Shown here in pieces: positions 5,917 through 45,299 of a DNA stretch of 64,000 bases. This DNA is from Lunularia cruciata. Lineage: Eukaryota > Streptophyta > Marchantiopsida > Lunulariales > Lunulariaceae. A program made the position numbers and the translations under genes. Location: the NCBI GenBank assembly GCA_948567375.1, contig OX419756.1:55628333-55692332 (forward strand), written 5' to 3'. Below the pieces are notes generated by a model, which searched no databases, was not told the DNA's origin, and was given only the letters and a program-made list of their open reading frames with translations. Each line of letters starts with the position of its first letter. The first letter of the stretch is position 1.

Positions 5917-6091
5917 TGGATATTTGCTAAGTGTTTGGCACTTTCGGAAGACTGCGGCTGTGGCTCAACGACGATTTTACGCACAAGCGAACTACACCTT
6001 CGAGTATTTGTGGAAACCGTGCTCTTATTGTCCGTGATCATACAGCAAAATCGGCCCTGTTCAGTACTGAAAGGTCACGTAACTCACAGAA

Positions 6092-6733
6092 ATGAAAAGA
6101 GAGTGGACTAAGGATTACGACGATGGGGAAGTCTCAAGCCCACCACGATTCGAGTTGTCTGAGGATGACGAGGATGAAGACGATGTGGACGTCTCAAGCT
6201 TACCACGATTCGAGTTGTCTGAGGATGACGAGGATCATGACGAGGATGCGGACCTCTCAAGCTTACCACCATTCGAGCTTTGTAATCAGCCCCCAGCATC
6301 AGTTCTGGCGAGGGACACAGAACTTTCTCCAGGAATTCATTGGATCCCCGTCAGGAATAGGAAACGAGCACCCGCGGAGTATGACACTGTTTCTAACTTA
6401 CCTCCGAGATTGCTTAGCTGTCTTGTGAGGGATCGCAGATCACATGAATATGGTTTCAGCCTATTGAGGTGCATAATGAGGCGGAAAGTGGAACTTCAAG
6501 AGCAAAGACTCCCTGACGAAGGGATTTTTCTTAATCCACAAATCTCCTTCTACGCATTCGAGGCCCTCGCATATTTGGCGTCGCATCCACGGCAGTCCGA
6601 AATAGAATCGGATATCTTCGCAGATGCACTGCGCAGTGGACTTTTCAGTCGAAAGCAGGAGCGTCGCATCATAGACTTTCAGGTTCAGTCGTCTGCTAAG
6701 CGCCGCAAAGCAGACATCTGCAGGATCAATTAG
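6092..6733 (+). CDS. Hypothetical host protein, acidic repeats plus basic tail
   Basis: An uninterrupted 213-codon ORF. Residues about 12-67 are roughly two and a half copies of a 20-22-residue repeat, each reading SS.P.FELSEDDED followed by an acidic run. Residues about 100-200 are a globular-looking region (YGFSLLRCIMRRKVELQEQR, then FYAFEALAYLASHP, then ESDIFADALRSGLFSRKQER). The tail holds a likely nuclear signal (SSAKRRKAD). The ATG at 6,092 is chosen because conserved DNA upstream looks untranslated and the acidic repeats begin right after it. A second copy at 62,740-63,252 keeps the C-terminal half well, which argues this part was under selection, but lacks the acidic repeats. I do not recognise the family. 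Acidic stretches plus a basic tail suggest a nuclear or chromatin-associated protein (inference). Upstream introns are possible. Confidence 0.55.
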   Translation: MKREWTKDYDDGEVSSPPRFELSEDDEDEDDVDVSSLPRFELSEDDEDHDEDADLSSLPPFELCNQPPASVLARDTELSPGIHWIPVRNRKRAPAEYDTVSNLPPRLLSCLVRDRRSHEYGFSLLRCIMRRKVELQEQRLPDEGIFLNPQISFYAFEALAYLASHPRQSEIESDIFADALRSGLFSRKQERRIIDFQVQSSAKRRKADICRIN

Positions 6734-8099: not shown

Positions 8100-10289
8100 C
8101 AACTATCAAAACTCAGCCAAATGAGTTTGCCCCGATGTAGCACATTCGATGGCAAGCATCTGACATCAATTTGAATGCACCACCAACACATTCAATGACT
8201 ACCATTCCAAATAAAGAAGGGTGATTTGCATTGTGAGGAGGACAGTTGGCATTCGCCCTAATGCACGCATCTGAACTTGGATTGTTTGGGAGAGTGATGG
8301 TTTGTATGTGCAAGCAATACTCAATAGTGAAAGTGTGACAATGAACAAGGAGGACCCAACCACTTTCTGACCAAAGAATGACTCAAGACTTTTGCTTGTA
8401 AAACAAAGTAGTGAATGGTCATTTCCAATTCTCACATTTTAAGAGATTAATTCACCTTAATCAATTCCAAATTTGAGCACATTGTGATAGTTTTTCCTAG
8501 TCTTCAAAGCCAAACTAGCCTTTACTTCCACTCCTTAGTTCTTGAGAGATGGTGTTTTGTGTATAATCCCACAAGGAAGGCCTCGATGCCATCCTCCAAA
8601 AGCACAACATGGAATGCTTGTGCAATGTATTGTAGGAGGGAGATAATTTGGAGCAAAAATATGGGATTCTTGCTCTAGGATTGAGATGTAACCTACTTTG
8701 AAATCATTCAAGAAACCATGACTCAAAAGGTGAGTAGTGAGGAGCTAAGAGAAAATCCCATGGTTGGACAAAAGAGAATCGGAGGAATGTACTTGGCCCT
8801 AATGCTAGCTCAATAGGAGCAATGACTATTAATACCAAGTTCTACAATTGGGAGCTGACCTAGGAAATCAAAGATACTTTTGGAGAACCTTGCAACTACA
8901 ACAATGGTTGGCCAGTTCTCAATTATAAGGACCCAACTCAACTACAATCATGGAAGCACTTATGAAGTGGTTTCATCCCAAACAGACACTTAACAAATAC
9001 CCAAACCATGATTTTTTATAAGATGTACAAGCGTGAGCTTGTCAATTGGGCTTGCATGTTCTAGTTATAAGCCCAAACTCTTCACTGTGACTTTTTAGAT
9101 GAGAGAAGAGCAACTTACATAGCCTCCTTTGCAATCCATTTCTACATGGGCTTAACTTATTAAAGGAGGAAGAGCACAAGAGATTCCCAAGTCATTATCT
9201 TGCAAAAGATTACTTTGGGAGACAGGATGCAAAAAGTGACCAAATAAGCAAATTTGTGTCAATGGACAAGGAGGTGGTGAATGCCAAGCCAAAGAAAAAA
9301 TGAGCACCATTGTCCCAAGCTATTGCTCCAACCAAGAAGCAAGAAAAGAAGAACACTTGGATCATTAATGTGGCTTCCAAAACCAAGATGGAGGAAGAAG
9401 TTGGTTTGGACAAAGAAACCAAAGAAGAGGAATAAGGATCCTTCACTTTGTAGTTGGAGGAGGAGGACCAAGAAGAAGAAGACTAGTTTGCTCCCAAATT
9501 CCTAATATCCAAATATCAAGAAGAAGCACCAGACAAGGGCAAGGAAACCCAAGAGGAGGTCATAGGCCTAGAACTTGAACCTCCAAGCCCCATCTTCAAA
9601 GAAGAAGAACACACACTAGGAAGAAGGAGATGAACTTTGGCCCATAGTTCAAGTAGACATTTGGCCAACACATTAGTAAGGAGCCAAAGTAGAAGAAGAG
9701 GTAGATGTTGAAGTAGAGGGAACCCTAGTGCAGATAAGAAAAGAACAAAGAGTACATACCTCAACAAAGGAGGAAGAATCAAGCTGAACCATTACTAGCC
9801 AAGTTTTGGAGGGGGTCACCTTCATTTTTCATTTGGTGGAATCAGTTTTGTAGTTGATTGAACTCTTGCTACCCCAATACCAACACAAGTGTCCAAAGAT
9901 CATAGATTATACAACCTTGGTGCAAAGAATGCACATAGAGATTTATGCTCAAAAGTCCCAAGAGAGTAAGCTCTTGGAGGAAGTGATCCAAAGCCAAGAT
10001 TGCTTCAAGGAGGAAGCAAAGAAGGTGAATGCCTTAGTGTAGGACATATTTGAAGAGAAGAAGAAGAATGCCTCTCTTGTTTATGGGCTCCAAGGTTAGG
10101 AGAAGGAATTGTGCAAGGTCCAATTGGAGTTGGGGAAGCTTTAAATGCAGAAGAAGGAAAAGGAGCTAAGCTACAAAGATCAGCTTTGAGCTTGAGACAA
10201 GGAGGTGTAGAGTCTACAGCAAGAGCTTAATAACACCAAGGTTCAAAATGCAATCTTGGACTTGCAGATGCTTGAGTATCAGAAGGAGT
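8100..10289 (+). pseudogene. R1a: Lys/Glu-rich coiled-coil gene relic, unrecognised
   Basis: About 2.2 kb aligns colinearly with R1b (55,890-58,730): shared AAACTCAGCCAAAT, GAGGAGGACAGTTGG, GAGAGTGATGGTTTGTATGTGCA, and AATGCTTGAG at the right. Decayed reading frames give Lys/Glu-rich, coiled-coil-like stretches, for example 9,854-10,042 (VQRMHIEIYAQKSQESKLLE), and a basic segment near 9,350. Many stops make it non-functional. The right edge is cut exactly where DM-2 begins (10,290); R1b shows the sequence that would have continued. The function is unknown. It could be a host multigene relic or the ORF of an unclassified repeat. Confidence 0.5.
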
Positions 10290-10737
10290 TGTCATGACAT
10301 TTGTAGCACCAAAGCTAGTTTGCTCGGATGTTGGAGTGGTATTGTTAGTAGTCATAGTTATTTTTGTAGTTGCTCATGGACTACATGATTGCAGCCAAAT
10401 TTCATGTTAGGGATACTAATCACATGGTGGGACCCACCATCAATTGCACCATTTTTGCCATTGAATGTGCCATCAATGGCACCATTAGGGTTGGAGATCT
10501 AGGTCAAACAGAGGGGTATACTTTCAAGTGCACCTTGAGAGAGCTCACTTCTTTGATGTTGAGCCTTTGAGTTCTTGGCTATGGTGGATAGAGGCTGGTA
10601 ACTGTCACCTAGAGTCTCTTAGCTCAAGTGGGTGTGGTTTGATTGTAGTCAATGCCTAATTATTGGTAGATTTTTGAGTGAAGGATTGAGTACAGATCTG
10701 ATTTGAGTATGATTCAAGACGAAGAATAAACTGATTA
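10290..10737 (+). repeat. Terminal repeat A1 of DM-2
   Basis: This 448-bp repeat starts TGTCATGACATTTGTAG and ends CTGATTA, matching A1 and A2 of DM-1. It is followed by about 40 bp of the same leader (GTGAGGGTTAGAGGGAAATCAG) that follows A1 in DM-1. No B repeat precedes or follows it: it abuts R1a directly, at a point where R1b shows uninterrupted sequence. This supports A as the true left terminus of the family. Confidence 0.7.
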
Positions 10738-11066
10738 CATAAAAAAAGTGAGGGTTAGAGGGAAATCAGATGTAAGAATTGGAAGTGACCATGCAGTAGC
10801 TCAAAGAAGCAATGCAATTGGCCAAATGCTTTGATTCCTTGGTTGTGACAACTTAGTCCCAACCTTGATCTTCATATAACTTGCAAACACACTACACACA
10901 AGTGGAGGAGTCGGCATTGATGGAGATTGATGCCATCCAACAAGGACCACTTGGCATTGTAGATAGAGAATGACTATGAAGAAATGGTGGTTGCTTTTAT
11001 TGTCACCAAATTGGACATTGCATTGTTGAATATTCACTCAAGAATAGATGACCTTGACAAATTGCT

Positions 11067-11516
11067 TGTCACGCCATTTGTAGTTCCGCATCTAGCTGCT
11101 CGGACACTGGAGTTTCAGTGATAAGAGTTAGAGTTATTCTAGTAGTTTCTTAGGGACTACTTTCTGACAGTCTGATTTGGTGTTTGGAGTACTGACTTCA
11201 CGGTGGGGCCCATCGTCACTTTGCACCGTTTGCACCGTCGAGTGTGCCGTCAGCGGGACCGTTAGGGTTCCAGTGCTAGCTCGAGTCCAGGGGGGTATAG
11301 TTTCAAAGTGAACTCCAGAGAGCTCACTTCTCTGATGTTGAGCCTTTGAGTTCCTGGCTATGGTGGATAGAGGCCGGCGTGGGTCACCTGGATTCTCTAT
11401 GCTTGAGTGGGTGTGGCTTGACTGTAATCAGTGCCCAGTTGTTGGCAGTTTATGGAGTGATAGATCAAGTACTGATCTGAGTTGAGTTGAGTTGAAAGTG
11501 TTAAGCAATCTGATTA
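11067..11516 (+). repeat. Terminal repeat A1 of DM-1
   Basis: This 450-bp repeat begins TGTCACGCCATTTG and ends AAGCAATCTGATTA, repeated as A2 at 20,217-20,664. It sits directly against the duplicated target TGCT. Nothing like the usual initiator-Met primer site follows it; a weak TGGTATC occurs only at about 11,569. Confidence 0.85.
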
Positions 11517-12604: not shown

Positions 12605-14340
12605 TTGGTGGTTCGGGTTTGCTGTTGTAGTTACGTGGTCACAACGGAGTTCTTTGGAGATTCCAAAGGAGTTAGCCTTGCAGTACACAGTGGGTTTACT
12701 CGGAGTGGTGCTCGATATCAGCTTGTATCTCAGGTCCCAGTGAAAGAGGAGATTGACTCTGAGTTGGAGTTTGACACAAGAGCTAATTCAGTTGAGAGTG
12801 CACTTGGTGTGTCTGCACCGTTGTTGTGGGACATGGACGAGATTTATGGGGCCTCCAAAGGCCCTAGGCGTTACTTTGGTATAGTGTGTACCATTGAGTT
12901 GGATGACTTCATCCAGGAGTTTGATAGTTGGTGTGATTTGCAGCAGATGCGGAACCCGACTTTGTTCACACCCTTCATGGCATGGAAGGGGTTGTTCCAA
13001 CATCTAGAGGGTCCGCCGATGGATGACTACCATGAGTTCAGGAGAGCTCATTTGGAGGAGATTGAGTTATGGAGACAGTATTGGTCTCCACACTATATCT
13101 CCGTCACTTCAGGCTCGGTGGCCAGGAGTAGATCGGCTGTACCCACGAGTTCTAGCTCGAGTAGTGTTGGTGGAGCTAGTGGAGGTGCACTAGCTGGAGA
13201 TAGTGCTACTACGAGTGGAGGTACCGCTGCAGGAGGTGGTGTGGTACCGGGGTTTAACCCCATGGTGGAGTTCTTCCTATGTTTGAGGTAGAACTACCAG
13301 GGAGTGCGGACTGACAAGCTAAAGAGCTTGCAGGAGTTCCAATGGAAGGTTGGAGAGAGCCTACGCGAGGCATACACTTGCATGAGGCGGCTGATCAGTT
13401 TCACTCAGGGAGTTACTGAGGCCCAAGCAGTCTAGTTTTGGTATGGGATACTTGATAGGGAGTTGCAACATAGAGTTCGTGATGCTACGTTGTTGCAGGC
13501 TACTTTGCCCACTTTGGCAGTAGTCTTTGGTTTGGCTGAGCATATTGAGCTCAACATGGTGGAGGAGAGAGTGGTGACATCTGGATTTGGTAGGGAGGCC
13601 TCATCCACGGCTGTGACTTCTTCTAGAGTGCAGCAGAGTGCACCACGCCAAGTTGGTTTTTGAGGACAAGGTGGACAGCCCAGATCCTATGGAGCGAGTG
13701 GAGGGCCTAGTGGAGTTAGCCCCTTACCCTCATTTTTGGGTCAGCAGTAGCCAATGAGTGGTGGTGTTGCTTGTTGGACTTGTGGTGGACCTCACCATCG
13801 GAGAGAGTTTACTCAGGGTAGCGGACCTGATACCTTTGGTGCATCACAGCCATCACAGAGGCAGTGTGAGCATTGCCACAGATTTGGTCACACTAGTGAC
13901 CGGTTTTTTGACCTACATTTGGAGTTACGGAGTGGTAGGGCTGCTATGGCAGGTAGTAGAGGAGCTCCAGTTCATGGAGGACAAGGTGGTAGAGGTGGTG
14001 GTAGAGGATCTACACCTAGTAGGGGTGCAGGACCTGCCCTTACTTCTGACACAACTATGGCTACTCGGATTGAGCAGTTGGAGCAGAGATTGGCTAGTAT
14101 GGCTATTGCTCAGAGGAGATCAGATTCGGGTGCTGAGGCTTCCACCTCATATGCTGGTGATAGAGATGCTTTGGACTTCATGTGCGGAGTAGCACAGGTG
14201 GATGCATCTGCAGCAGTGACTAGGAGTGCAGTACGTGCTCCAGAGCCTAGAGGAGCATCAGTGGAGTTGGACCCACAGAGAGGAGAGGTTGGGAGACAGG
14301 TCAGACTTCCCCAGTCTTTCACGCTTTCTGAGGCATTGTA
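12605..14340 (+). pseudogene. DM-1 gag region
   Basis: Structural-protein region of DM-1. The first part is a capsid-like helical segment (DDFIQEFDSWCDLQQM, then AWKGLFQHLEGPP), followed by a Ser/Gly-rich linker. A second helical stretch (LREAYTCMRRLISFTQ) leads to two zinc-knuckle-like motifs, CWTCGGPHHRREF and CEHCHRFGHTSD, then a Gly/Arg-rich tail (HGGQGGRGGGRGS) and a short coiled coil (RIEQLEQRLASMA). The Gly/Arg tail and paired Cys/His motifs suggest RNA binding, as in nucleocapsids. Broken. Confidence 0.6.
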
Positions 14341-14699
14341 GACGACATCCATGGTTCCTAGATGTCCCAGTGCATGTGTGGTAGGTGGTGATGGAGGACA
14401 TGATGGACTACCTACTAGTCAGCCACCTGCTACTACACAGACTGAGTCTAGCATGATGTTGGGGGTGGCTCAGATGATTATGCGGCATCCTTTGTTTTCA
14501 GCTAGTGACATGTTTACATTGGGAGTTGACTCAACCCCAATATTCCGGTTGGCTGCCACGTTGTGTGAGAGTAGGGATGGTGCAGTTCCTACTACTAGAG
14601 TAGAGGTGGTTGGTAGTGGAGCTGATTTGGTTGAGGAGCATGGGATCCGTTCAGCAACCAGTGGTTTATGGCAGGCAGCAGCGGCTAGACTAGAGGAGT

Positions 14700-15130
14700 T
14701 GCCAGCTAGACCGGCCTTTGAGAGAGTGTGGTTTACACCTGGTGTTGTCCTATTGGATAACCAAATGGGGATTTTTCGTTTGGTGGGACCTTTAGGGAAG
14801 GTCTATACACCACAGAGAGTCTTGTTAGACTCTGGTGCGTAGCCCCTTACGTTGGGGAAGGCTGTAGTTGTCGGTCTGGAGTTACGGAAGACCGATGTGG
14901 AGAGGTGTCCATTTCAGATCCAGACATCTTTAGGTGGTGGTTCGACACAGTACATCACACGTGGGGAGCTTGTTGTCCAAGTTCAGCCTGGTCATCCGAC
15001 TGATCGCTCGGTGGTGAGAGCTCAGGCTATTGCGACGATAGCTGAGTCATATGATGTGCTAGTTGGGGGAGCAATGTTATACCCTATGGGTTTCAGCATT
15101 GACTATTGGGAGGAGACAACCTCTTATAGA
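14700..15130 (+). pseudogene. DM-1 aspartic protease region
   Basis: A retropepsin-like segment: the active-site block VLLDSGA is followed by a beta-rich stretch ending in SYDVLVGGAMLYPMGFSID, in the place of the family's second hydrophobic 'ILG' motif. It lies between gag and the methyltransferase, the usual place of the protease in Ty3 elements. About 130 further residues of unassigned linker precede the methyltransferase. Broken. Confidence 0.6.
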
Positions 15131-15534
15131 CCTGGTTGGCAGTCTAGTGAGGGACGGGTATGTCGCCTACCAGTACGCTTCAATAGTGGCAGTCTTGGCT
15201 CACTACAGTCCGGGACCATGGCAGCATCAGTTTTAGCTTTCAGCGGTGCAGTTACTTGGCCTGGTGACTTGTTGGATGGGAATGCCCATGCAGAAGATAC
15301 TCCAGTACCAGAGGAGATCACTCGGCTTTGGAGTACGAGTGGGATTGTTCCATCCACCTTGGATGTTCCATTGTGGAGTTCAGAGGAGGCATTGCAGCAA
15401 CATGCAGATCAGTTGGTGCAGCAGGCTTGGAGTGGAGCCTTTGTACCATCAAGGGATGAGTGTGAGGATGAGCCTCCAGAGGCGATTGCTTTGACACCTC
15501 TGGATACCACACTCATTGCTTGGCAGTATCCAGT

Positions 15535-16470
15535 AGAGGAGATATGTCTATTGGAGTTGTTTGGTGGGATCAACACCGGACTAGCTGCGGTGTTACAAGC
15601 GGGTATATGAGTACAAAGGTACTTGTATGTAGAGAGAGATGAGACTACTAGGCAAGTCTCTCTATATCATGTGGCACACTTGGCCTATCAGTATCCGGAG
15701 TTATTACCAATGTCAACAGTCAAAGGTTACCAGAAGGCCTTACCAGGAGACATTTCCTTACTGGGGGCGCATGACCTAGAGAGACATGGGCCTATTCACT
15801 TGGTGATTTTTGGATGGCCATGTCAAGGACATACACATGTGGGCCGCGGTTTGGGTCTTCAGGATCCTTGTTCTGGTGTGTTTTAGGAGATTTTACGGAT
15901 ACTACGACATCTCTAGGTTCATCAGTCTGTTTCTCCAGCTTACCTTTTGGAGAACGTTCCGTTGATGGGTGATTCTTGCACTAGAGTGGTGGCGAGTACA
16001 CATCAGGTCCATTCGTGGATGGGACCTGCTGTATTGTTAGATGCAGCCAGAGTGGGATCACGGGCTCATCGTCTTCGTCTTTGGTGGACGAACCTCTTAC
16101 CTAGAGAGGTTCTACAGAGTAGTTATGATGGGATTCAACGACTAGACCACGTTCTTGTTGATGATATCTTGGATGTTGGACGTCAGTCTCAGACAGTGGT
16201 AGTGGCTGATAGGTCACCTATGGCAGTGGTGAACCTAGTTGGACAGCCTAGAGCTGCATTTCCCACACTTATGAGTTTCCCATGCTCTCATGCTTTTTGA
16301 GAGGGAGGATCTAGACTTGTTTGGGACTCATAGTTACAGTAGTTGGTGGAGCCCAATTTTGATGAGAGAGAGCAGGCGATGGGTTTTTGCACCGGTATTA
16401 CCGCTGTTCTAGCAGTGTCAGAGGCATCCAGGCGTCAGGTGTTAGGTCAGGCTATGGACCTGAACTGTTT
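15535..16470 (+). pseudogene. DM-1 cytosine-C5 DNA methyltransferase domain
   Basis: The ordered motifs of C5-cytosine methyltransferases are readable between protease and RT. Motif I (SAM binding): LELFGGINTGLAAVLQAG, 15,549-15,606. Motif IV with the Pro-Cys catalytic pair: HLVIFGWPCQGHT, about 15,797-15,835. Motif VI: LLENVP, near 15,945. Motif VIII (QxRxR-like): SRAHRLRLWWTN, about 16,057-16,092. A motif IX/X-like block: EREQAMGF, about 16,364-16,387. Spacing (about 920 bp in all) fits a compact catalytic domain without large regulatory regions. C5 methyltransferases transfer a methyl group from S-adenosylmethionine to cytosine in DNA. The segment before motif IV (GPIHLVIFGWPCQG) recalls DNMT3/DRM-type enzymes more than MET1; that is an impression. 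The gene is interrupted in this copy. The alternative, an unrelated Rossmann fold, is unlikely given five motifs in order. Confidence 0.85.
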
Positions 16471-16919
16471 GACTTGGATTGTGAGCCTTGGCTTGGCAGA
16501 GCAGCATAGGATGCGCTTGATAGGCATCACCACTCGGACACTTGTGAGCCCTGTGCCTATCAAGACAATTCAGGCACATGCTGGGGGCGATGGACCGAGT
16601 GGACATGGTATTCTTGGGACACATCCGGTAGCTACTAGGGAGAGTGGTCTACTTGGAGTCCATCCAGGTGAGTGTGGGCTACTTGGATTACACCCTTGGT
16701 CCACATGGGATGCAGCCAGAGGACGTGTGGAGCTTGCAGCCAGTGTGGAGCTTGCAGCCAGAGTGGAGGGAGTTTTTCACACAGAGGTTGGGACCTCTAG
16801 TGGTCGAGAGCATGTCACTATTGCTCCCAAGGGCCCAATGTAGCAGCCAGTCAGTACGTCTTCTACTCCTACTATAGTTACAAAGGATACTTGGGAGCCA
16901 GATCTTAGACCCAAGCTTA

Positions 16920-17860
16920 TTGGAGAGGAAAGACGGAGGGTTTGGAGGTTCTTGAGGAGTCACACGAGTTGTTTTGCCTTGAGTATGAAGGATTTGGGTG
17001 CTCTGAAGGGACCTGGTATACGGATTAAGCTGACTAGCAACACACCAGTTTTCCGACGTCCTTATCAATATAGTGATATGGAGAGGACATTGATTCAAAG
17101 CCGGAGTAGTGACCTTTTTGAGGCTGGTTTGGTGGAGATTTCACATGGAGAGTATGCATCAGCGACAGTGATGCCAGCCAAGAAGGATATGCATGGCAAC
17201 TATACAGATAGGCAGATGTGTGGAGATTACCGTCCTATCAACCAACAGACCAAGGCTGATCGGTATGCCATACCTACATCGGAGGAGATTTTTGATGCGA
17301 TTGGGCATGCAAAGGTCTTCAGTACTTTGGATCTTTGAGCGGGATATCATCAGCTGCTGATTAGGGAGGAGGATAAGTCCAAGACATCATTTTGGGCTAT
17401 TGATCCTCACGGCAAGGATGTGTTATATCAGTGGAGGTTCTTACCATTTGGGTTGAAGAACGCTCCTACTGAGTTCCAGAGGGTCATGGATAGGATCCTA
17501 GCTGGATTGGATTTTGCTCGGTGCTATATTGATGACATTTTGGTTTATAGCACTACTATGGAGGAGCATGAGAGACAGTTGTTGGAGGTGTTTGAGAGGT
17601 TGAGATCTCATGGACTCAAATTACATCTTGGGAAGTGTAGGTTCTTCCACGAGCAGGTTGAGTATTTGGGTCACACTATCTACCCCGGAGGACTTGGTGT
17701 TCAGCAGACAAAGGTGGAGGTTATTGCACATATTCCTTGGCCTACGGATGTGAGCATAGTGCGAGCATTCCTTGGGTTGGCAAACTTCTATCGCCGCTAT
17801 GTTAGAGGATTTAGTGCCATTGCCAAAGCCTTGATGAAGTTGACCAAGCTTACATAGGAG
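16920..17860 (+). pseudogene. DM-1 reverse transcriptase
   Basis: Ty3/gypsy RT: an N-terminal block GIRIKLTSNTPVFRRPYQYS, then MCGDYRPINQQTKADRYAIP, KVFSTLDL, LPFGLKNAPTEFQRVMD and the catalytic YIDD (CYIDDILVYS, near 17,522). The thumb segment follows (YLGHTIYPGGLGV, AFLGLANFYRRYV). The polymerase copies element RNA into DNA. The first block begins about 450 bp after the methyltransferase, across a linker with short repeated phrases (GVHPGECGLLGLHP). A decayed second copy lies at 25,443 onward in DM-2. Broken. Confidence 0.85.
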
Positions 17861-17869
17861 TGGTGTTGG

Positions 17870-18340
17870 GGAGATGAGCAGGAGAGAGCTTTCGTAGAGC
17901 TCAAGGAGAGGTTGACATCTGCTCCTATTTTGAGGAGACCAATCAGGGGATGACCATTTCAGGTTCATACTGATTGGAGTATGTTGGGGCTTGGAGCGGT
18001 GCTCACCCAGCATAATGATGAGGAGAAGGAGTTTGCGGTGGCCTATGCTAGTCGCTCCAACAATTCAGCGGAGGCAAAGTATAGTTCATATGAGGGAGAG
18101 TGCTTGGCAGCAGTTTCGGCAGTAGCACATTTCCGATGTTACCTATATGGTAACCCCTTCACTCTCATCACTGATCATCAGCCGCTGAAGTGGTTGATGG
18201 AGTCCGACAAGCTTTCAAGGAAGCTTGCACGATGGGCTCTGATTTTACAAGAGTATGATTTCACGGTTGTTCATAGACCTGGAGTGGTGAACCGTGATGC
18301 AGATGGGTTGAGTAGAAACCCATGTCCCAGCCAGTAGGAT
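17870..18340 (+). pseudogene. DM-1 RNase H
   Basis: RNase H directly after RT: HTDWSMLGLGAVLTQ (first Asp block), FAVAYASRSNNSAEAKYSSYEGECLA split by the usual spacing with the catalytic Glu, and LITDHQPLKWLM with the third acidic residue, ending VVHRPGVVNRDADGLSRN. It removes the RNA strand during reverse transcription. Order and spacing are normal for Ty3 elements. Confidence 0.8.
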
Positions 18341-18689
18341 CAGATTGGAGCACGTTGGCATGGTGAGACAGATGAGGAGATGGTGCCAAGTTGGCATGCA
18401 TCTGCCTTTCTGTGTATATTTTCTGAGGCTTTGGTGGTATCTATCTCAACGCATATAGGAGGAGTTATTGAGGTCACAGATCCAAAGAGTGAAGATATTG
18501 GTACAGTTCAGCGAGACATTCATGATGATGTCTTAGTGATGGACTATCTTTGCACTGGTGTTGTGGGTGGCACAATTGGGGCCAAGGAGAGAGACCGTGT
18601 TCTTCACAAGCCAGACAATTTAGATTGGAGGGTAGACACCTTTTGCGTGTATGGGAGGATGGTAGAGTGCGAGTAGTACCACTTCCATC

Positions 18690-19640
18690 ACAGAGACCAC
18701 AGTTGGTCTGTCATGCTCATGAGGAGCTAGGACATTTTGGAGTAAAGCGTACATATAGCTTACTTCAGAGTTATTATTGGTGGCGCGGTATGCAGACTGA
18801 GGTGCAGTAGTTTGTTGCCAGATGTGTGGTTTGTGACTGAGTTAGAGCATCATTCAATGCTCCTACGCCACAGTTACACCCATTACCTATCATGGGATTG
18901 GGTTACCGTTGGAGTTTGGACTTTGCCGGACCTTTACCGCTGACTGTGAGACATCATCGGTATGTTTTGGTGATGGTGGAGCACTTCTCCAAGTGGATTG
19001 AGTTGGTGGCACTTCCTGACAAGTCTAGTGAAGGGACAGCTTACTCGTTCTTGGATCGAGTTCTTAGTCATTTTGGTGCACCAGCTGAGGTTTTGACTGA
19101 TCAGGGTACAGAGTTCTTGGGAGAGTTTCAGGTCTTGTGTGACAAGGCTTTGATTGATCATCGTACTACATCCCAAGATCACCCTGAGGTAGATGGCTTA
19201 GCAGAGAGAGTGGTTTAGATGGTGAAGAGAGGATTGCAAAAGTATGGTTTGCAGAGAGGCCACTTGGGAGATTGGGATCTCTAGTTACCTTGGTTGGCCA
19301 TGGGCTATTGGTTCATCCGGCAAGCCTCCTTAGCATCCTTCTCTCCATAATTTCTACTCTATGGACGAGATCCAGATTTACCTGCTGCCATTCGTCGAGA
19401 TGCTATTGTAGTTTTGGACTTGGATGACCTCGATGTATGGATGAGCGCATGTTCTCAGCGGGCAAAGATCTTTCGGAGAGTGATGCCGATGGCCTTTGAG
19501 AACTTGGCGATTGCTCAACATAGAGATACTTTACAATTTGCTACCATTTGAGGAGGAGGTTATAGACCCTTGATCCGTTGATTTCATCCAAGCAACTATG
19601 TATATCTACAGCAGACAGCACCGACAACACTTGATGTTTC
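18690..19640 (+). pseudogene. DM-1 integrase
   Basis: The HHCC zinc-binding head (CHAHEELGHFGVKRTYSLLQ, then the paired Cys region near 18,820) is followed by the DDE core: YRWSLDFAGPLPLTV, VLTDQGTEFLGEF, and the Glu-bearing HPEVDGLAERVV. The C-terminal segment (NYVYLQQTAPTTLDV, TILRVREVLPSGVLVLEG) is a beta-rich GPF/SH3-like tail. Presence of a DDE integrase and a 4-bp target duplication sets this element apart from tyrosine-recombinase (DIRS/Ngaro/PAT) elements, although its end repeats resemble theirs. Broken. Confidence 0.8.
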
Positions 19641-19800: not shown

Positions 19801-19950
19801 CGTGTAGGCTTGAGGTGTATGTTATGTGGCTCTTCTGGTGAAACTGCTACTATGTTAGTGTGTGATAGCTGTTTGAGAGGATGGCATATGGCATGTATGA
19901 CTCCTCCTCTCACGGTGGTTCCTCAGGGACAGTGGTTATGTCCTATAGCT
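19801..19950 (+). pseudogene. DM-1 PHD zinc finger after integrase
   Basis: CMLCGSSGETATMLVCDSCL, then RGWHMACMTPPLTVVPQG, then QWLCP: the spacing CxxC-x12-CxxC-x4-HxxC followed by 'PPL...P.G.W.CP' is typical of PHD fingers, which read histone H3 tails. It follows the integrase tail in the position where chromoviruses carry a chromodomain. DM-2 keeps recognisable remnants at about 38,770-38,915, so it belongs to the family and is not an accident of one copy. A role in steering integration to chromatin marks is inference. Confidence 0.75.
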
Positions 19951-20096: not shown

Positions 20097-20108
20097 GCTA
20101 GGGGGTGA
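20097..20108 (+). other. Polypurine-like tract before B1
   Basis: AGCTAGGGGGTGA lies immediately upstream of B1, the position of a polypurine tract that primes second-strand synthesis in LTR elements. In DM-2 the equivalent is CTAGAGAGGCAA (about 39,425-39,436). Confidence 0.4.
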
Positions 20109-20214
20109 TTGTGGCACTTTAGAGTCTATGTATGACTTATGTGTGAGTTGTGCTTCTATAGTGTATGATGTTGACAGCGATGTATGTTGTGTAGCGATGT
20201 ATATACGCACGACA
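20109..20214 (+). repeat. Terminal repeat B1 of DM-1
   Basis: This 106-bp repeat starts TTGTGGCACTTTAGAG and ends CGCACGACA. It is identical by eye to B2 (20,665-20,770). A 2-bp spacer (GC) separates it from A2, so that GACA-GC-TGTC joins the two element termini inside the element. Confidence 0.85.
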
Positions 20215-20216
20215 GC

Positions 20217-20664
20217 TGTCATGCTATTTGTAGTTCCGCATCTAGCTGCTCGGACACTGGAGTTCCATGATAGTAGTTAGAGTTATTCTAGTAGTTTCTC
20301 AGGGACTACTTTCTGACAGTCTAATTTGGTGTTCGGGGTACTGACTTCACGGTGGGACCCATCGTCACTTTGCACCATTTGCACCATCGAGTGTGCCATC
20401 AACATGACCGTTAGGGTTCTAGTGCTAGCTCAAGTCCAGGGGGTATAGTTTCGAAGTGAGCTCTAGAGAGCTCACTTCTCTGATGTTGAGCCTTCGAGTT
20501 CCTGGCTATGGTGGATAGAGGCCGACGAGCGTCACCTGGATTCTCTATGCTTGAGTGGGTGTGGCTTGACTGTAATCAGTGCCTAATTGTTGGCAGTTTA
20601 TAGAGTGACAGATCAAGTACTGATCTGAGTTGAGTTGAGTTGAAAGTGTTAAGCAATCTGATTA
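20217..20664 (+). repeat. Internal terminal repeat A2 of DM-1
   Basis: This 448-bp second copy of A is about 93% identical to A1, with differences mostly C/T and G/A transitions. It lies between B1 and B2. Confidence 0.85.
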
Positions 20665-20770
20665 TTGTGGCACTTTAGAGTCTATGTATGACTTATGTGT
20701 GAGTTGTGCTTCTATAGTGTATGATGTTGACAGCGATGTATGTTGTGTAGCGATGTATATACGCACGACA
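20665..20770 (+). repeat. Right terminal repeat B2 of DM-1
   Basis: 106 bp, identical to B1. Its last bases GACA abut the target duplication TGCT, after which CH-1 gag resumes. B is absent next to A1 at the left end, giving the arrangement A1...B1-A2-B2. Confidence 0.85.
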
Positions 20771-21006
20771 TGCTCAAATGGAGATTGTGGAGTGTGATGA
20801 TCAAGCAAATGAAGAATCCTTGTTGGAAAGTTCAAGCTACCAATTAGGAACTTGATTAGTTCCAATAGGATTGAAGGCTTGACCTATGCAAGTTTTCTTC
20901 ACTTGCAAGGTATGATATTTGATTGTGGTTGTAGGATTTTGGTTGATGTTGGAAGTTCAAAGAATTGCATTTCCATATAATTAACAAAGGAATTATGAAG
21001 TTTTAT

Positions 21007-27904: not shown

Positions 27905-30900
27905 CTTTTAAGATGCAACGTCCTCGTTGTGCAATTGTTGGTCAAAGGCTTGCACCAACACCGGTGCATGTGCCAAATTGGCAGTGGGTTCCCAGGTTGC
28001 TTTATAGAGGGGGTAACCTTTCCATTGTACTAGATATTCCACCTACGGATGGCGAGTACCACGCATGCGTTTTTGGAGAATCCGCTCCACTTCATATTCG
28101 TCTATGCTATCAATGACTATCGGACAAGGTCGAATGTCCTGTGTGGAAGGACCTTGGCCTGATCGGGGAGCATATCTGCGTAGTAGGGAGACATGGAACA
28201 CTAGATGGATCTTCATGTGTGGTGGTAGCTCAAGGTGATAGGCCACATCGCCGATGCGACGAAGAATCGAGAAAGGCCCAATAAAACAAGGTCTGAGCTT
28301 ACGAGATCCAACTAATGTGAGGTTGGTTGTTGATAGCCACACTTGATCCCCAACATTGAACTCCATGTGCCTATGGTGTGCATCAGCATATTGCTTTTGT
28401 CAATTTTGCGCAATCTGTAACCTGTGCTTAGCGCTCTCCACACCTTGTTGGATTCTAGAAACAAATGTGTTGACTGCATCAACCTTGGTAGTCACTGGAC
28501 GGATCTTCATCAAGCTAGAAGGTGTGAAGGGATGCTCACCATACATGAGGAAGAACGGAGTGACCTGGGTGGAGGAATTCACTGAATTGTTGTAAGTGAA
28601 TTCCACCAACGGAAGTAGGGTGTCCCACCTCTCTTGCTCTTCTAAGGTGAAGCCGCGTAACATGTCTTCAATGGTGCGATTAGCCCGCTCTGTTTGGCCA
28701 TTTGTTTGTGGGTGGTAAGCTATAGACATGGCCAACTTGGTTTTGAAGAAACCAAAGAGTGTTCACCAAAACAAACTGGTGAATTGGGTGCCTCTATCGG
28801 TGATGAGTACTCTAGACAAGCCATGGTGAGCAAAGACTGCATCTAAGTATAGTTGAGCTAGTTGTGGAGCGGTCACCTCCTTGGTGGTAGGGCGTACATG
28901 AATCATTTTGCTGAGCCGGTCCACAAAGACCACAATGGAGTCAAACCCTGAGGTGGTCTTGGGTAATTCACAGACGAGATACATACTCACTTGTTCCCAA
29001 CGTTGGGTAGGAGTGGGGAGAGGTTGAAGGAGCCCTGCAGGAGCTTGATTAGAAGCTTTGTTCTGTTGACAAAGTAGGCAGCAACGCACATAGTCCATCA
29101 CGTTGTTGCTCATTTTGGTCCAATAGTAATGGCGCTTGATTGCCTCCAAGGTCTTGTCCACTCCGACATGAGCTACAATGGCCAAATCATGACATTCCGC
29201 TAGAATGGTGGTGCGTAATTCTGGGACATTTGGGATCCACAATTGGCCCTCCCAAAAGGTGAGTCCTTGGGTGCTGGTGACACCTTTGGACGATTGCGCT
29301 TCTACAATCTGTGGATCAATTTTTGTAGCAGCTAGAATCTCTTGCTAGAATTCAGGGTTAATCTTAACCTCTGCCACCAAGTTGTTGGCCATTGGCATGC
29401 GGGTGAATGCATCTGCAAGTTGCTTCTTACCTTCCACATAGGTGATTGTCATGTTGAAGCATTGTCGCCACTCTGCCCACCAAATTTGGCGACGAGATAG
29501 ATCCTTCTGCGTCTCGAGGTAGACTAGAGGTTTGTGGTCTGTCTCTACTACAAATGCCTTCTTGCCCAAGTAGTGCTTCCAATGCTTGGTTGCTAGAACG
29601 ATGGCCAACTCTTCTCGTTCTGTGATGTGGTAGTTGTGCTCTGCCGGTAACAACTTTCAAGAGAAATATGCAATTGGATGCCATCCATCATGCCACTCTT
29701 GTTGTAGGAGTGCTCCTATTGCTACGCCTAATGCATCTGTAGCCAACTTGATTGGATGTTTTGGGTCATACCACTTCAAGATTGGTGCATGTAGCAAGGC
29801 GGCCTTCAATTCTTGAAAGGCCAACTCTTGTGTAGTTCTCCATGTCCACTTCTTCCCCTTGCCAAGTAGTGCCGTTAAAGGCTGTGCAACCTTAGAGAAG
29901 TCCTTGACAAATCTACGATAGAATCCCGTCAACCCCAAGAAGCTCTTAAGTTGAGTCTGATCTTTTGGGGCACTCCATTTTTGAATGACCTCTATTTTAT
30001 CTATCAATACTTGAATGCCCTCTGCACTTACTCCATGCCCTAAGTAGTCTACTTCAAACTTGCCAAACTCACACTTTGAGATTTTGGCGTACAACTGATT
30101 TTGTCTTAGAATCTGGAGGACCTCTCGTAGATGTTGTTTGTGTTATGTCATCGTGCTACTATATACTAAGATATCATCCAAGAAGACGATAACAGACTTA
30201 TCCAAGTATGGATGAAATATGTCATTCATTAGGCTCATGAAAGTGGCAGGCGCATTGGTGAGGCCAAAAGGCATCACAAGATACTCAAAGTGGCCATACT
30301 TGGCTCAAAAGGCTGTTTTGGACACATCCTCCTCTACAATTCGGATTTGATTGTAACCGCTCTGCAAGTCCAGTTTGGTGAAGTATCTTGCTCCATGGAG
30401 TTGATCAAATAGGTCATCCATGCAAGGTAAGGGGTATTTGTTCTTCATTGTTTGCTGATTGAGACCCCGATAGTCAATGCACATGCGCATTGTACCATCC
30501 TTCTTCTTCACAAACAAGACAGGGGCTCCATATGGTGATATGCTAGGTTGGATGAACCCTTTCTGTAGCATCTCCTCAATTTGAGTCTTACACTCCTCCA
30601 ACTCATGAGGTGATAGGCGATATGGGGCCTTACAAGGAGGTGTCTTCCCCGGGAGTGTCTCTATTTTGTGATATACTCGCCTTTTAGGTGGTAATCCTGA
30701 GGGTAGATCATCGGGAAATACATCTTGAAACTCATCCACCACATCCTTCAATTTCTCAGGAATTTGTCCAATGAGTTGTGCACTCTGGACTTCTCTTATT
30801 AGACCCATAAAACATCTATCGGTCTTACAGACCGTTGTCGTCCCTACGACATATAGAGGCAGTTTCTGCCTGTGTGATTTTTCTTTAACCCCAATAATTG

Positions 30901-31342
30901 ACCATTGGTGGGTTCTCACTACTTTCTTCCTCCAATCCACCATTGGGTTGTACTGCTCCATCCATGGCATGCCTAAAATTGCATCATAACGGGCTAACTG
31001 TATCACTCGCCACTCAATTGCTTCCTGATATTCTCCTACAGAGAGGGTTACCCGTCTAGGTAATGATTCAATCCTCTCTATTTGCCTATTTGGTAACTCT
31101 ACTTCTTCACTTCCATCTCTCTCTAGATCCATTCCCAAGCTTATTGCAACAAAGCAAGACAAGAAATTCTTTGTTGCTCCCGGATCTATTAATACTCTCA
31201 CTTGATTACCTTTTAGGATTCCATTCATGACAATCAATTGTGAGGTTGCCTTTCGGGATCCTTGCGCATTATTCTTCTTCCTTCCCTTGCTTCTCTGCTT
31301 CTTGATTGAGCTAGTAAGGCCGCAAGGTACATTTACTGACAA
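27905..31342 (-). pseudogene. MC-1 pol region with chromodomain
   Basis: Read on the minus strand. Protease: [13 protein letters not shown] with [49 protein letters not shown]. RNase [33 protein letters not shown]. Integrase: CHDLAIVAHVGVDKTLEAIK, VSMYLVCELPKTTSGFDSIV, LITDRGTQFTS and [20 protein letters not shown]. The C-terminal chromodomain has EYEVERILQKRMRG and VQWKGYPLYKATWEP (27,960-28,125). Chromodomains bind methylated histone tails and steer integration to heterochromatin. Broken by several interruptions; domain order normal. Confidence 0.85.
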
Positions 31343-32439
31343 TCTTTGTTTTCCGAAGTGGTTTCCACCTCCTCCTCTTCAATATGCCTCTCCATGTTGT
31401 TCAAAGATCGCCTGTACAAAGGCCAAGGGCCTCTAGGGAAATGAGTGTGACAATTGGTAGATATGTGCCCAATACAGCCACAATTGTAACAACAACGTTG
31501 TTCTCCTCGAGTCCCTTCTCCTTGTGGGACTCCATTTCTTCGTTCGTCTACCCGTCCCCGCTCCCCTTGAAGTGGCCGTGCTCCTCGATCTCGGAATCGA
31601 TGGTTGCCCAATTCCATCGGTACAAGTCCACCCATGTGTGGCATTTCTGCCCAATAATGTTGAGGTGGAACTACTCCTTCACCTCCACCTAATGCTCCTG
31701 CTATTCTTTGTGCACAAGCAATAGCTTCAAATACCATGCGAGGGTTTTGCACCATGACTTCTTGGCAAATCCGCTCTTTCAACCCTCATTTGAAATTGTT
31801 GAGAGCCTCTACTGGACTCATGTCGGTGATTGTGACTTGTAGATCCAGAAATGCCTCCACATACTCTTGTACGCTATTCTTCTGTCTCAATCCCCATAGT
31901 TGGGTTTGAGCCATCTGCATGGAATCCACCGATTGGAAATTCTTCAGCAATCCTTCTTGCATTGCTGTCCATGTGACCTCCCTTCTCTCTGCCAGCATGG
32001 ATCGTTCCCAAGCATCATACCATGTGAGGGCTTTATCAGTCAAGTACCCACATGCAAACACGCCTACAGCATGCTCTGTGATCTCTGTTGAGAACAATCA
32101 AAAATATTGATTCATTCTCGAGATCCAATTTTCCACTACTCCCATCGTACGCTACCCCTTGTAAGGCTCAATGTTGCAGGTTTTCTTCGTCCGGAGTGGC
32201 AATGTGGCTTCATCGTTTATAGGGTTCGTAGGCACGGGTGCCTCTCCAAGTACTTCAGTCGCAGGTACTGGATTTTGAGACGGCTCTTCTTCTTGCATGG
32301 CTTGATCGTTCCTAAGGATCTGCACTTGACTTTGTAATGTCTCCATGGTCATCTTAATCTTTCGAAATTCATTCAACATCCCTTGCATTCCTTGCACCAG
32401 CTCTTGCAACTGCGGATCCATGGTTCCTGCAACACCCAA
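31343..32439 (-). pseudogene. MC-1 gag region
   Basis: The minus-strand gag begins near 32,421 (MDPQLQELVQGMQGMLNEFR, a coiled-coil start). It continues through a capsid segment (YLTDKALTWYDAWERSM, then NFQSVDSMQMAQTQLWGLRQ) and a zinc knuckle CYNCGCIGHISTNCH, followed by an acidic tail ([13 protein letters not shown]). Broken. Confidence 0.8.
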
Positions 32440-32994: not shown

Positions 32995-33252
32995 AGGAAT
33001 GGGATGGATGGAATTTATGGACCACCAAATCCACTTCCGCCAAACCATTGGGACTTTCATGTCCAGATATTACCAAAGCATCATTTCACACAATTCATCA
33101 CCTCACGCTTTAGGCAAGACTTTCTACATATGATCACCGTGTCAAAGGAACCCTTGATACTTCCAGTTGTAACTTATGGAGAACGGTGGACGTGTTGTAT
33201 CTATGTGTTAATCAACTAGATAAATTGAGAGTAGTGGAATAGAGTAGTAGCG

Positions 33253-34152
33253 ATGGCGGCAATACCGGATGTTATCCTTGCAATGCAACAACAAATCGAG
33301 CATCTTTCTCGATTGTTGGATGAACGAGACCAGCAACGACGAGAACAGATAGACAGAGCGCCAGTTCGAGATGGAGAAGATCGCATTCGATTTTCGAAAC
33401 CCAAGGTGTTTGAAGGCAAGAATCTTCCAGGCATAGTGGAGAATTTTGTGTTTGACTGTGAACGTTACTTTGAAGCCACCAATCTTCAAGACGAGCGGAA
33501 ACAAATTCTCTTGGCTTCTAGCCAGTTGGATGGCGTGGCAAAACTCTGGTGGCGATTCCGAGTAGAAAGAGCTGAACGACAAATTGTTACACCGATTTTG
33601 ACATGGGCAAAATTCAAGGATGCAATACTTGGTCAATTTCAGACTATAAATGCCACCCAAGCTGCACGAGATAAATTGGCGGAGTTGAGGCAGATTGGCT
33701 CAGTGAGAAGCTACATCACACAAGTTCAGAATATCATCATGCAAATTCCAGATATCCAAGAAGGTGAAGTTCTGGATCGATTTGTGCGAGGATTGAAGTC
33801 ACGAACCAGATTGGAAGTGACCATGCGAGAGCCACAGAACGTAGAAGAAGCCATGCAATTGGCTGAGCGTTTTGATTCCTTAGTTGCCACAACTTGGTCT
33901 CGACCTCGACCTACACAAAACTTACCCGTACCACGAGTGGAAGAACCGGTACCAATGGAGATTGATGCTATCCAACGAAGACCACTTGGCACAGTAGATA
34001 GAGAAAGATTACGACAAAATGGAGGTTGTTTTCATTGTCGCCAGTTGGGGCATCACATTGCTGAATGTCCACTCAAGAATGGACGACCTCGACAAGTTGC
34101 CCAAGTGGAGGTTGTGGAGCGGAATGATCCGGGAAACGAGGAATCCCAGTAG
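33253..34152 (+). CDS. gag: CH-2 gag polyprotein
   Basis: An open 299-codon gag. Residues about 1-40 form an N-terminal coiled coil (LAMQQQIEHLSRLLDERDQQ). The retrotransposon-gag capsid domain spans about residues 50-200 (VFEGKNLPGIVENFVFDCER, AKLWWRFRVER, FKDAILGQFQTI, DRFVRGLKSRTR). The nucleocapsid zinc knuckle CFHCRQLGHHIAECP (CxxC-x4-H-x4-C) lies near residue 265. Gag forms the cytoplasmic particle in which reverse transcription happens. Start chosen at the ATG shared with CH-3. The protease-containing frame begins shortly after its end. Confidence 0.9.
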   Translation: MAAIPDVILAMQQQIEHLSRLLDERDQQRREQIDRAPVRDGEDRIRFSKPKVFEGKNLPGIVENFVFDCERYFEATNLQDERKQILLASSQLDGVAKLWWRFRVERAERQIVTPILTWAKFKDAILGQFQTINATQAARDKLAELRQIGSVRSYITQVQNIIMQIPDIQEGEVLDRFVRGLKSRTRLEVTMREPQNVEEAMQLAERFDSLVATTWSRPRPTQNLPVPRVEEPVPMEIDAIQRRPLGTVDRERLRQNGGCFHCRQLGHHIAECPLKNGRPRQVAQVEVVERNDPGNEESQ

Positions 34153-34178
34153 GAGATTTCGAGCCACCTACTGGGAGC

Positions 34179-41339: not shown

Positions 41340-42195
41340 CTCTAGAAGGCAAGATAATGTTTCGCGTTCAATTCTACATTAGGCAGAAGGAGGTTATAAG
41401 AGCTCACTCGGAGAGAACATTAGGAGAGGAGATGGATGAACTTATGTTAGAGAACCAAGATTCATTTTTATACTAGGTAGTTCATTATGATGTCTTTGAG
41501 GTGATTTTGTACATCTTGTACACATGAGAGGATTTGGAGAGATTGTGTGAGGTGGATTGTAGATTTTGGAGATTAAGGTGATTTTGGGCAAAATCTCAAG
41601 TTTGAGATCTGGACTTGAAATTTCTACACATGATAGCTTGGGTTGTCTTTCAGTTATCATAGTTGAAATTATTGTGAGAGCTATTATGAATATTGGGCTA
41701 GAATTTTTGGAAGTTGATAGGGTAAACTGCTCCTGCAACTACATGCTCTTTGGAAAATTGTATAGAGTTTGCCATTTCTTCCATTTTAAGTGGATTGTTA
41801 GGAAACTTCCCAAAAAAATTTAGTATGTTGTATCCAACATAGGGAGTTATAAGTTTTTGAAGTGATGGGTGTGGTTTTCAGACCAAATCTGAAATATGTG
41901 TGCTAAATAGAAAGGTGTCTAGGCCAAATGGCTTGATTAAAAGATTTGAAATTTTGCAGAGACTGACACCCTAGAGTTGTGATGAAGTGTCTAAAATTTC
42001 AAAGGACTGTCACATACTAGTTGAGAGATTTAAGTGAAATTGTAAAGAAGGATCAATTCTGCAGAGTTGAGATCTCATGCATGAGGAGTTTGAGAGCAAC
42101 AAAAAGCATGTTTGAGTGTTTAGATTCATCTTGGGAACATGGAGTGTCATCAAGAGTAGAAATTGAGACTATGCAAGGTTCCCTAAGGGTTTGAG
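41340..42195 (+). other. OT-1 leader, no coding domain seen
   Basis: Untranslated leader between primer site and first ORF; no domain recognised. Confidence 0.4.
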
Positions 42196-42612
42196 GTGAT
42201 AGTAGTGGTAGATTTGAGGAAAAGAGAGTATAGAATAGAATTTGAAGAGAGTGTTGAGAGGATCCAAAAACCTACACCACTTGGAAGAAAGAGTGAGTCT
42301 AAGTGCTTTCTATGTGGAAAGAAGGGACATAAGACAAGTTCATATCCATTGACCTTTGAGGGCAAGAGATTGAGGGAAAGGAGAGGCTTACTTGACTTGG
42401 GTTTGCATGTTGGACCTTCTTCACCAAGATTGGGAAGGAGAAGATCTAAGACAAAGGAGTTGTATGAGGTTTGTGGAGTGGAAGGACTTCCAAAAAGACA
42501 TGAGTGTAGTGGAGTAAAAGCACTTTTGGAGACTTTGGTGAAGGATCTTGGAAAGAGTCTTAGTACAGCTACAAAAATACTACCACATTCATCAGCTAGT
42601 TCTCAAGATTAG
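42196..42612 (+). pseudogene. OT-1 accessory zinc-knuckle ORF upstream of gag
   Basis: An open stretch of about 138 codons with a CCHC-type knuckle CFLCGKKGHKTSSYP near residue 37, and a Lys/Arg-rich middle (GRRRSKTKELYEVCGVEG) with further Cys residues. It lies upstream of the gag start at 42,818, which has its own knuckle at about 43,545. It may be an extra 5' ORF of the element, or an older gag fragment. The domain is clear; its origin is not. Confidence 0.45.
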
Positions 42613-45290: not shown

Positions 45291-45299
45291 GTCTCAAGA

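What the first reader, a model, noticed from the sequence alone, without database searches (positions are those of the whole stretch)
15535..16470. A cytosine DNA methyltransferase domain inside a Ty3/gypsy element
Five ordered C5-methyltransferase motifs, including the Pro-Cys catalytic pair, lie between protease and reverse transcriptase in DM-1. A retroelement that could set its own methylation pattern reverses the usual host-silencing story. Methyltransferase capture has been reported for dinoflagellate and charophyte retrotransposons; here it sits in what looks like land-plant DNA, in the same polyprotein as a PHD finger.
Basis: partly seen in the sequence, partly recalled or inferred. 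Interest (0 to 1): 0.92.

Follow-up and report, generated by a model that had tools for sequence, protein, structure and literature searches.

The report
Plant jumping gene carrying DNA methylase
A decayed copy of a very abundant retrotransposon in a plant genome (probably a liverwort) carries a DNMT3-type DNA methyltransferase ahead of a conserved, probably leaky stop codon, which suggests that the element makes the enzyme in quantity and may methylate its own DNA copies.

Summary
Confirmed. Window 15536-16519 encodes a DNMT3-type cytosine methyltransferase between protease and reverse transcriptase of a gypsy-type element. This copy is dead (six in-frame stops in the domain). It is no one-off: 20 of 20 copies sampled by a downstream junction carry the domain, and that junction occurs about 3,100 times in the 566-Mb genome, probably a liverwort's. 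Relatives occur in Marchantia, Riccia, Calypogeia and Sphagnum. The domain was under purifying selection while copies were active (omega about 0.38; 0.96 for single-copy changes) and forms one clade outside plant host DNMT3. B1-A2-B2), with a 4-bp target duplication in 5 of 7 copies and a conserved junction palindrome, suggesting a circular intermediate; (3) decaying copies change C to T at CG and CHG. Activity was not measured. The closest known element, KnitGypsy-Dnmt3 of a charophyte, shares gypsy domains, DNMT3 and DIRS-like repeats; common descent was not tested. New variant of a known kind.

The parts
11063..11066 (.). left 4-bp target-site duplication TGCT
   Evidence: equals 20771-20774
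11067..11516 (+). terminal repeat A1 (left end, starts TGTC)
   Evidence: self-blastn; 93.5% identical to A2
12605..13291 (+). gag-like open piece
   Evidence: ORF list; resembles the N-terminus of Marchantia P0140 by eye
13751..14341 (+). zinc-knuckle piece of gag
   Evidence: resembles P0072 by eye
14684..15238 (+). aspartic protease region
   Evidence: tblastn with the L002 region, 39% identity; in L002 itself the Pfam protease match is below its cut-off
15536..16519 (+). DNMT3-type C5-cytosine methyltransferase domain, broken by six in-frame stops
15821..15823 (+). catalytic Cys codon of motif IV (WPCQ)
16841..16849 (+). junction UAG plus CAGCCA (fits UAG CARYYA), in frame with RT
16973..17842 (+). 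reverse transcriptase
17861..18262 (+). RNase H
18646..19395 (+). DDE integrase region
19816..19944 (+). PHD finger after the integrase
   Evidence: PF00628; tblastn
20100..20108 (+). polypurine-tract-like AGGGGGTGA before B1 (read by eye)
   Evidence: sequence printed; inference
20108..20214 (+). repeat B1
   Evidence: 100% identical to B2
20211..20220 (+). palindrome GACAGCTGTC at the B1-A2 junction
   Evidence: same 10-mer in L002 at 7051
20217..20664 (+). terminal repeat A2
20664..20770 (+). repeat B2 (right end, ends GACA)
20771..20774 (.). right 4-bp target-site duplication TGCT

Best explanation
This is a decayed copy of a high-copy gypsy-type retrotransposon family, found in liverworts and Sphagnum, that carries its own DNMT3-type methyltransferase. 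Shown: the domain with its catalytic motifs, its constant place, its purifying selection, the conserved in-frame UAG CARYYA after it, and the split repeats with 4-bp target duplications. Inferred: most ribosomes stop at the UAG and make Gag-protease-DNMT3, a minority read through and add RT-RNaseH-integrase-PHD, so the methylase is a Gag-level component of the particle. There it methylates the element's cDNA, which passes through a circular form joined at the repeat ends. The integrase cuts that form at the GACAGCTGTC junction and inserts it, with the PHD finger steering it to a chromatin state. New copies arrive already methylated, which would hide them from sensing of foreign DNA and keep them quiet and tolerated.
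For: Domain and fold: PF00145, DNMT3A as best PDB relative, AlphaFold model of the intact relative L002 with mean pLDDT 80, all 50 listed Foldseek hits (of 207 at E <= 0.001) DNMT3. Copies: MT-RT-RH-IN in this order in 20 of 20 longer copies, chosen by open-frame length; protease before MT in 19 of 20 (L018 starts inside MT); PHD finger complete in 18 of 20, cut by the end of the stretch in L012 and L014. MT upstream in 20 of 20 junction-sampled copies. About 3,102 junctions, control 2. Selection: MT changes shared by 3 or more of 41 rows have omega about 0.38, single-copy changes 0.96, Fisher p 6e-4. Readthrough: TAG in 40 of 40 copies read, 38 of 40 fit CARYYA; in phase with both MT and RT in 17 of 20 longer copies, the other three having a frame break; 96 of the first 100 exact-flank places, all on contig C1; TAG CAATCA in L002 at the same place in the same frame; ORF1 proteins of several subclades end before RT. 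Ends: 4-bp duplication in 5 of 7 copies testable; junction palindrome in L002 too; extra bases at A2-B2 in 5 of 100 listed places match what lies beyond the repeat ends.
Against: No methylation, readthrough or packaging was measured. L016 and L023 do not show the 4-bp duplication. Conserved UAG inside the genome reflects common descent; the independent support is L002 and the protein C-termini, whose DNA I could not see. RNA structure after the stop is strong only in L002 (z -3.96) and absent in the three sequences of this genome that were folded. At least eight relatives, among them the P0150 subclade, have no stop between MT and RT, so the stop is not essential to the kind, though some of these are gene models. 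Copies are themselves CG/CHG mutated, so the enzyme does not protect old copies from methylation. The A2-B2 and B1-A2 junction counts differ (3,471 and 2,561), which the model does not explain; the CG-rich second pattern may simply decay faster.
Confidence: 0.55

Rival explanations
1. The methylase acts on the host genome or on integrated copies in trans, not on cDNA in the particle.
For: De novo CG activity was shown for some retrotransposon DNMTs in yeast (PMC5890265, abstract and discussion); copies decay by C-to-T at CG and CHG.
Against: The host has its own DNMT3, DRM and CMT-like genes (L004-L007, classed by eye; L004 also by search) that can account for methylated copies; CHG is not the context shown for the retro enzymes in that paper; the constant place next to Gag and protease suggests a particle role (inference).
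Confidence: 0.2
2. The domain is kept for a non-catalytic role such as nucleic-acid binding or particle assembly.
For: Some relatives vary at catalytic sites, e.g. P0012 has WPYQ; purifying selection alone does not show catalysis. In the 20 junction-sampled copies, many of them decayed, motif IV reads WPCQ in 12 and the motif VIII stretch HRLRL in 11.
Against: The motif IV Cys and Gln, the ENV Asn and a motif VIII Arg are invariant or nearly so in 20 aligned sequences. Of 41 rows picked by Pfam score, 41 keep WPC, 40 keep ENV and 34 keep HRLRL.
Confidence: 0.15
3. The junction UAG is not a readthrough site; RT-IN-PHD is made by reinitiation, splicing or from rare stop-less copies.
For: Marchantia gene model P0143 joins MT to RT, possibly by a predicted intron; 2 of 100 listed places have a sense codon.
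Against: UAG plus CARYYA in the same frame in two lineages about 47% identical in the domain; 904 places carry TAG with the exact flank.
Confidence: 0.15
4. A chance or artefactual motif match in decayed sequence.
For: Separate pieces score below Pfam threshold.
Confidence: 0.01

Closest known systems
KnitGypsy-Dnmt3 of Klebsormidium nitens (PMC5890265; abstract, section on charophytes, discussion and passages seen)
   Same: Gypsy-type domains with a Dnmt3-type, unrearranged methyltransferase; repeats described as having DIRS structure; purifying selection on the domain.
   Different: There the DNMT is described as in the Pol ORF, with fewer copies than in Symbiodinium; here it ends a Gag-PR-DNMT frame before a conserved UAG, with a PHD finger, about 3,100 junctions, and relatives in liverworts and Sphagnum.
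SymbioDIRS-Dnmt3 and SymbioLINE-Dnmt of Symbiodinium (same paper, same parts seen)
   Same: Retroelements carrying DNMTs.
   Different: Tyrosine recombinase or LINE machinery, not DDE integrase.
Plant and animal DNMT3
   Same: Motif order, sequence and fold.
   Different: Retro domains are a separate 100/100 clade, not inside the 15 plant DNMT3 sequences.
Type I stop readthrough of tobamoviruses (UAG CARYYA; PMC5382211, passages)
   Same: Stop codon and hexamer.
   Different: In a retrotransposon between Gag-PR-DNMT3 and RT; not measured here.

Membership tests
DNMT3-type C5 methyltransferases | motifs I, IV (PC), VI (EN), VIII and X in unrearranged order | tested here: met
   motif numbers recalled
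DNMT3-type C5 methyltransferases | closest by sequence and fold to DNMT3 among solved structures | tested here: met
DNMT3-type C5 methyltransferases | groups with eukaryotic DNMT3 in a tree | tested here: inconclusive
   one side with plant DNMT3 and DNMT3A at 79/94, long branches
DNMT3-type C5 methyltransferases | DNA methylation activity | not testable with these tools
   needs an assay
Ty3/gypsy LTR retrotransposons | protease, RT, RNase H, integrase in this order with gypsy-type Pfam domains | tested here: met
   protease below Pfam cut-off in L002
Ty3/gypsy LTR retrotransposons | two equal long terminal repeats at the element ends | tested here: not met
   A1 on the left, B1-A2-B2 on the right
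DIRS elements | split direct repeats | tested here: met
DIRS elements | tyrosine recombinase instead of DDE integrase, no target duplication | tested here: not met
   DDE integrase and no recombinase hit in the two L002 ORFs or the ten window pieces scanned; 4-bp duplication in 5 of 7 copies
KnitGypsy-Dnmt3 | gypsy domains plus Dnmt3 plus DIRS-like repeats | tested here: met
   features compared with the paper's text only
KnitGypsy-Dnmt3 | common descent of domain and pol | not tested
   K. nitens sequences not retrieved
Type I readthrough signal | UAG followed by CARYYA, downstream frame in phase | tested here: met
Type I readthrough signal | measurable readthrough | not testable with these tools
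   needs an assay

The most novel reading that the evidence does not exclude
A plant retroelement makes a DNA methyltransferase as a stoichiometric Gag-linked particle component, with polymerase added by tobamovirus-type readthrough. It methylates its cDNA de novo, replicates through a circle with split repeats, and uses a DDE integrase that cuts a palindromic end-to-end junction, so new copies enter the genome already marked. This would be a life cycle between those of LTR and DIRS elements, and old in land plants.
Probability: 0.4. Interest if true: 0.88.

Novelty: new variant of a known kind. Interest (0 to 1): 0.72.

Why it matters
It extends methyltransferase-bearing retroelements from a charophyte and dinoflagellates to liverworts and Sphagnum, here at about 3,100 junctions in one genome. 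The place of the enzyme before a probably leaky stop gives a concrete, testable reason why an element would keep it: as a particle component acting on cDNA. The split repeats with a conserved junction palindrome and a 4-bp duplication offer a testable route by which a DDE integrase could use a circular intermediate. Of seven copies dated, five have A1-A2 identity of 97.6% or more (six of the seven were picked for long open frames, which favours young copies), so the question can probably be studied in a living plant.

Tried and rejected
Rejected: chance motif match; a one-off insertion; capture from the extant plant DNMT3 genes sampled, since the retro clade is not nested in them; an RNA structure as a general readthrough aid. 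Led nowhere: Pfam on separate pieces for the domain; plasmid collection; viral contigs, one weak hit L001 of 32% identity; a weak Streptomyces hit L003. Paper searches for the same thing in bryophytes turned up PMC5890265; the other titles were seen as listings, except passages in PMC12344493 and PMC8616336. [quoted passage not shown] its supplement was not seen and may hold bryophyte cases. Searches on readthrough, on PHD with gypsy and on split repeats with gypsy were seen as listings, with passages of PMC10085805 and PMC5382211. A count of the A1-internal junction did not complete. The first tree lost 12 of 14 plant DNMT3 rows to my own pattern and was rebuilt with them and without DRM, CMT and five retro rows. 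Host identity is inferred: own DNMT3 is 65% identical to Marchantia DNMT3b and eight contigs of 60-85 Mb hold about 558 of 566 Mb; no name was given.

Full report
WHAT IS THERE. Window pieces from gag through protease, methyltransferase and RT lie in one frame, broken by stops; the integrase piece is in another frame (frames worked out from the coordinates). Window 15536-16519 matches PF00145 at E 4.5e-5 when read with X at its six stops, while the separate pieces give no hit at E up to 1. Its best solved relatives are DNMT3A chains (E 2.9e-10). A protein search found 134 relatives, 120 listed, among them proteins of Sphagnum, Calypogeia fissa, Riccia sorocarpa and two Marchantia species; some carry protease or zinc knuckles beside the domain (P0060, P0072, by eye). 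Named hits are gene models and may be joined wrongly; most hits come from public contigs without a name.

AN INTACT RELATIVE. Contig L002, filed under a cyanobacterial bin and most likely a contaminant (inference), encodes the architecture with open frames: ORF1 ends with the methyltransferase, ORF2 holds RT, RNase H, integrase and a PHD finger. Its protease match is below the Pfam cut-off (20.5 against 24.3 bits). Its ends overlap by 127 identical bases, as an assembler makes from a repeat-flanked or circular sequence (inference). An AlphaFold model of its domain (mean pLDDT 80; residues 224-258 below 50) gave 50 of 50 listed Foldseek hits to DNMT3, of 207 at E <= 0.001.

THE FAMILY IN THIS GENOME. 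The window lies in a 566-Mb assembly of 74 contigs. PF00145 gave 2161 first-look candidates of which 123 were scored; not all are elements, e.g. L004 to L007 look like host genes. A 20-base junction pattern with up to 2 mismatches occurs 3,102 times against 2 for its control. At roughly 9.7 kb each that could be up to about 5% of the genome if all were whole, which they are not (inference). I read 20 copies of 9-10 kb (L012-L031) picked for the longest open frames. All 20 have methyltransferase, RT, RNase H and integrase in that order; 19 show the protease region before it (L018 starts inside the domain); the PHD finger is whole in 18, cut in L012, and beyond the stretch fetched in L014. A further 20 short stretches (L032-L051) followed the Pfam ranking, leaving out L004-L008 and four other places of that part of the list. 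As a sample not picked by the domain I took the first 20 junction places in list order, two of them copies already read: 20 of 20 have the domain upstream, 19 with at least 358 of 368 query residues and one with 279. Nearly all are decayed: one of the 20 has no in-frame stop in the 1.4 kb read, and five look frameshifted.

SELECTION AND DECAY. In 41 rows for the domain, changes shared by three or more copies gave N 45, S 44 (omega about 0.38), changes in two copies 0.53, and single-copy changes N 128, S 49 (omega about 0.96); Fisher p 6e-4 for the first against the last. RT gave 0.41 shared against 0.53 single, integrase 0.38 against 0.94, with small numbers. So the domain was kept by selection while copies were active and drifts after insertion. 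The copies were chosen by Pfam score, which may favour intact motif IV. In 21 rows there were 115 single-copy C-to-T changes over 362 CG sites, 200 over 666 CHG sites and 126 over 2041 CHH sites, the pattern expected of CG- and CHG-methylated copies. Identity of A1 to A2 is 93.5% in the window copy and 94.9 to 100% in six others, three of these from partial repeats.

THE STOP. At 16841 a TAG followed by CAGCCA stands 132 bases before the RT query start and in its frame. In the 20 longer copies it is in phase with both MT and RT in 17; L013, L024 and L029 have a frame break. TAG is there in 40 of 40 copies read; the next six bases fit CARYYA in 38 of 40. TAG with the exact flank occurs 904 times, control 0. 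Of the first 100 exact-flank places, all on contig C1, 96 have TAG and the others AAG, TAA, TAA and TTG (lists compared by eye). L002, whose domain is about 47% identical, has TAG CAATCA at the same place in the same frame. UAG CARYYA is the type I signal of tobamoviruses (PMC5382211, passages). Open frames of several subclades end at matching places before RT, with C-termini such as SPKVFA, PPSPGIQ, LSATK and GASSSN, while P0143, P0144, P0148, P0150, P0153, P0154, P0155 and P0156 run on. No general RNA structure follows the stop: of four sequences folded only L002 was better than its shuffles (the L016 stretch began upstream of the stop).

THE ENDS. The window element is flanked by TGCT and consists of A1, the internal part, B1, GC, A2, B2. 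Of nine other copies whose right side was read (L016-L019, L021, L023, L028, L030, L031), eight show B1-A2-B2, some across two overlapping stretches, and L028 shows B1 without A2. On the left, A1 runs into the same internal sequence in seven of them; it was not found for L018 and L019. Of seven copies with both flanks read, five show the 4-bp duplication (window, L017, L021, L030, L031); L016 and L023 do not. The B1-A2 junction holds GACAGCTGTC, exactly the right end GACA and the left end TGTC joined through GC, and the same 10-mer stands in L002 at 7051 in otherwise different sequence (differences judged by eye). The A2-B2 junction occurs 3,471 times and the B1-A2 junction 2,561 times with up to 3 mismatches, controls 0. 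Of 100 A2-B2 places listed out of 1,535, 95 are plain, 2 carry CATCA, which is what follows A1, and 3 carry an added A, which is what precedes B1; the pattern could not show losses. I infer that cDNA ends are joined before integration. De Mendoza and colleagues state that KnitGypsy-Dnmt3 has repeats of DIRS structure with gypsy domains (figure legend).

ORIGIN. In a tree of 50 rows the 25 retro domains are one clade (100/100) and 15 plant DNMT3 sequences another (100/100); retro, plant DNMT3 and DNMT3A together stand against nine metagenome or prokaryote sequences with 79/94 only. A clade of retro plus plant DNMT3 alone is neither favoured nor rejected (p-AU 0.435). One old capture is the simplest reading. 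A weak hit in Closterium (P0157, E 5e-13) suggests streptophyte algae too.

HOW IT WORKS. The model in the best explanation is inference from anatomy: Gag-level methylase, cDNA methylation, circle, DDE insertion, PHD targeting. The PHD region of L002 resembles canonical PHD fingers such as those of CHD4, PHF12, UHRF1 and KDM5; its ligand is unknown.

PRINT. Open-access searches showed no report of this bryophyte family in what I saw; PMC12344493, a wide DNMT survey, was seen in passages only, and subscription papers were not searched.

Noticed in passing
window 10287-10778: An older repeat related to A (about 74-77% identity) lies just upstream of A1, probably the rest of an earlier insertion.
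   Followed up: no
window 33235-37103 and 47865-51806: Two copies of another gypsy-type element with long open pol frames of 737 and 753 aa; family name not tested.
   Followed up: no
window 28400-31785 (minus strand) and 42187-46712: Further retroelement-like open frames of other families, judged by eye.
   Followed up: no
window 6083-6733: An open frame of 216 aa with acidic repeats that does not look like a transposon; unidentified.
   Followed up: no
L002: A retroelement contig, probably of a plant or alga, is filed in a cyanobacterial genome bin (CADCWO010000201.1) and is probably contamination.
   Followed up: partly
P0150, P0153, P0154, P0155, P0156: A distant subclade (35-39% identity) of unnamed origin has the methylase-like domain, integrase and PHD in one open frame without the stop.
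   Followed up: partly
L004, L007: The host genome holds at least two DNMT3-like gene pieces of its own, besides a DRM-like (L005) and a CMT-like piece (L006); classed by eye, L004 also by search.
   Followed up: partly
L002 3489-3608: A very stable RNA fold (z -3.96) follows the UAG in L002 but not in the copies of this genome that were folded.
   Followed up: no
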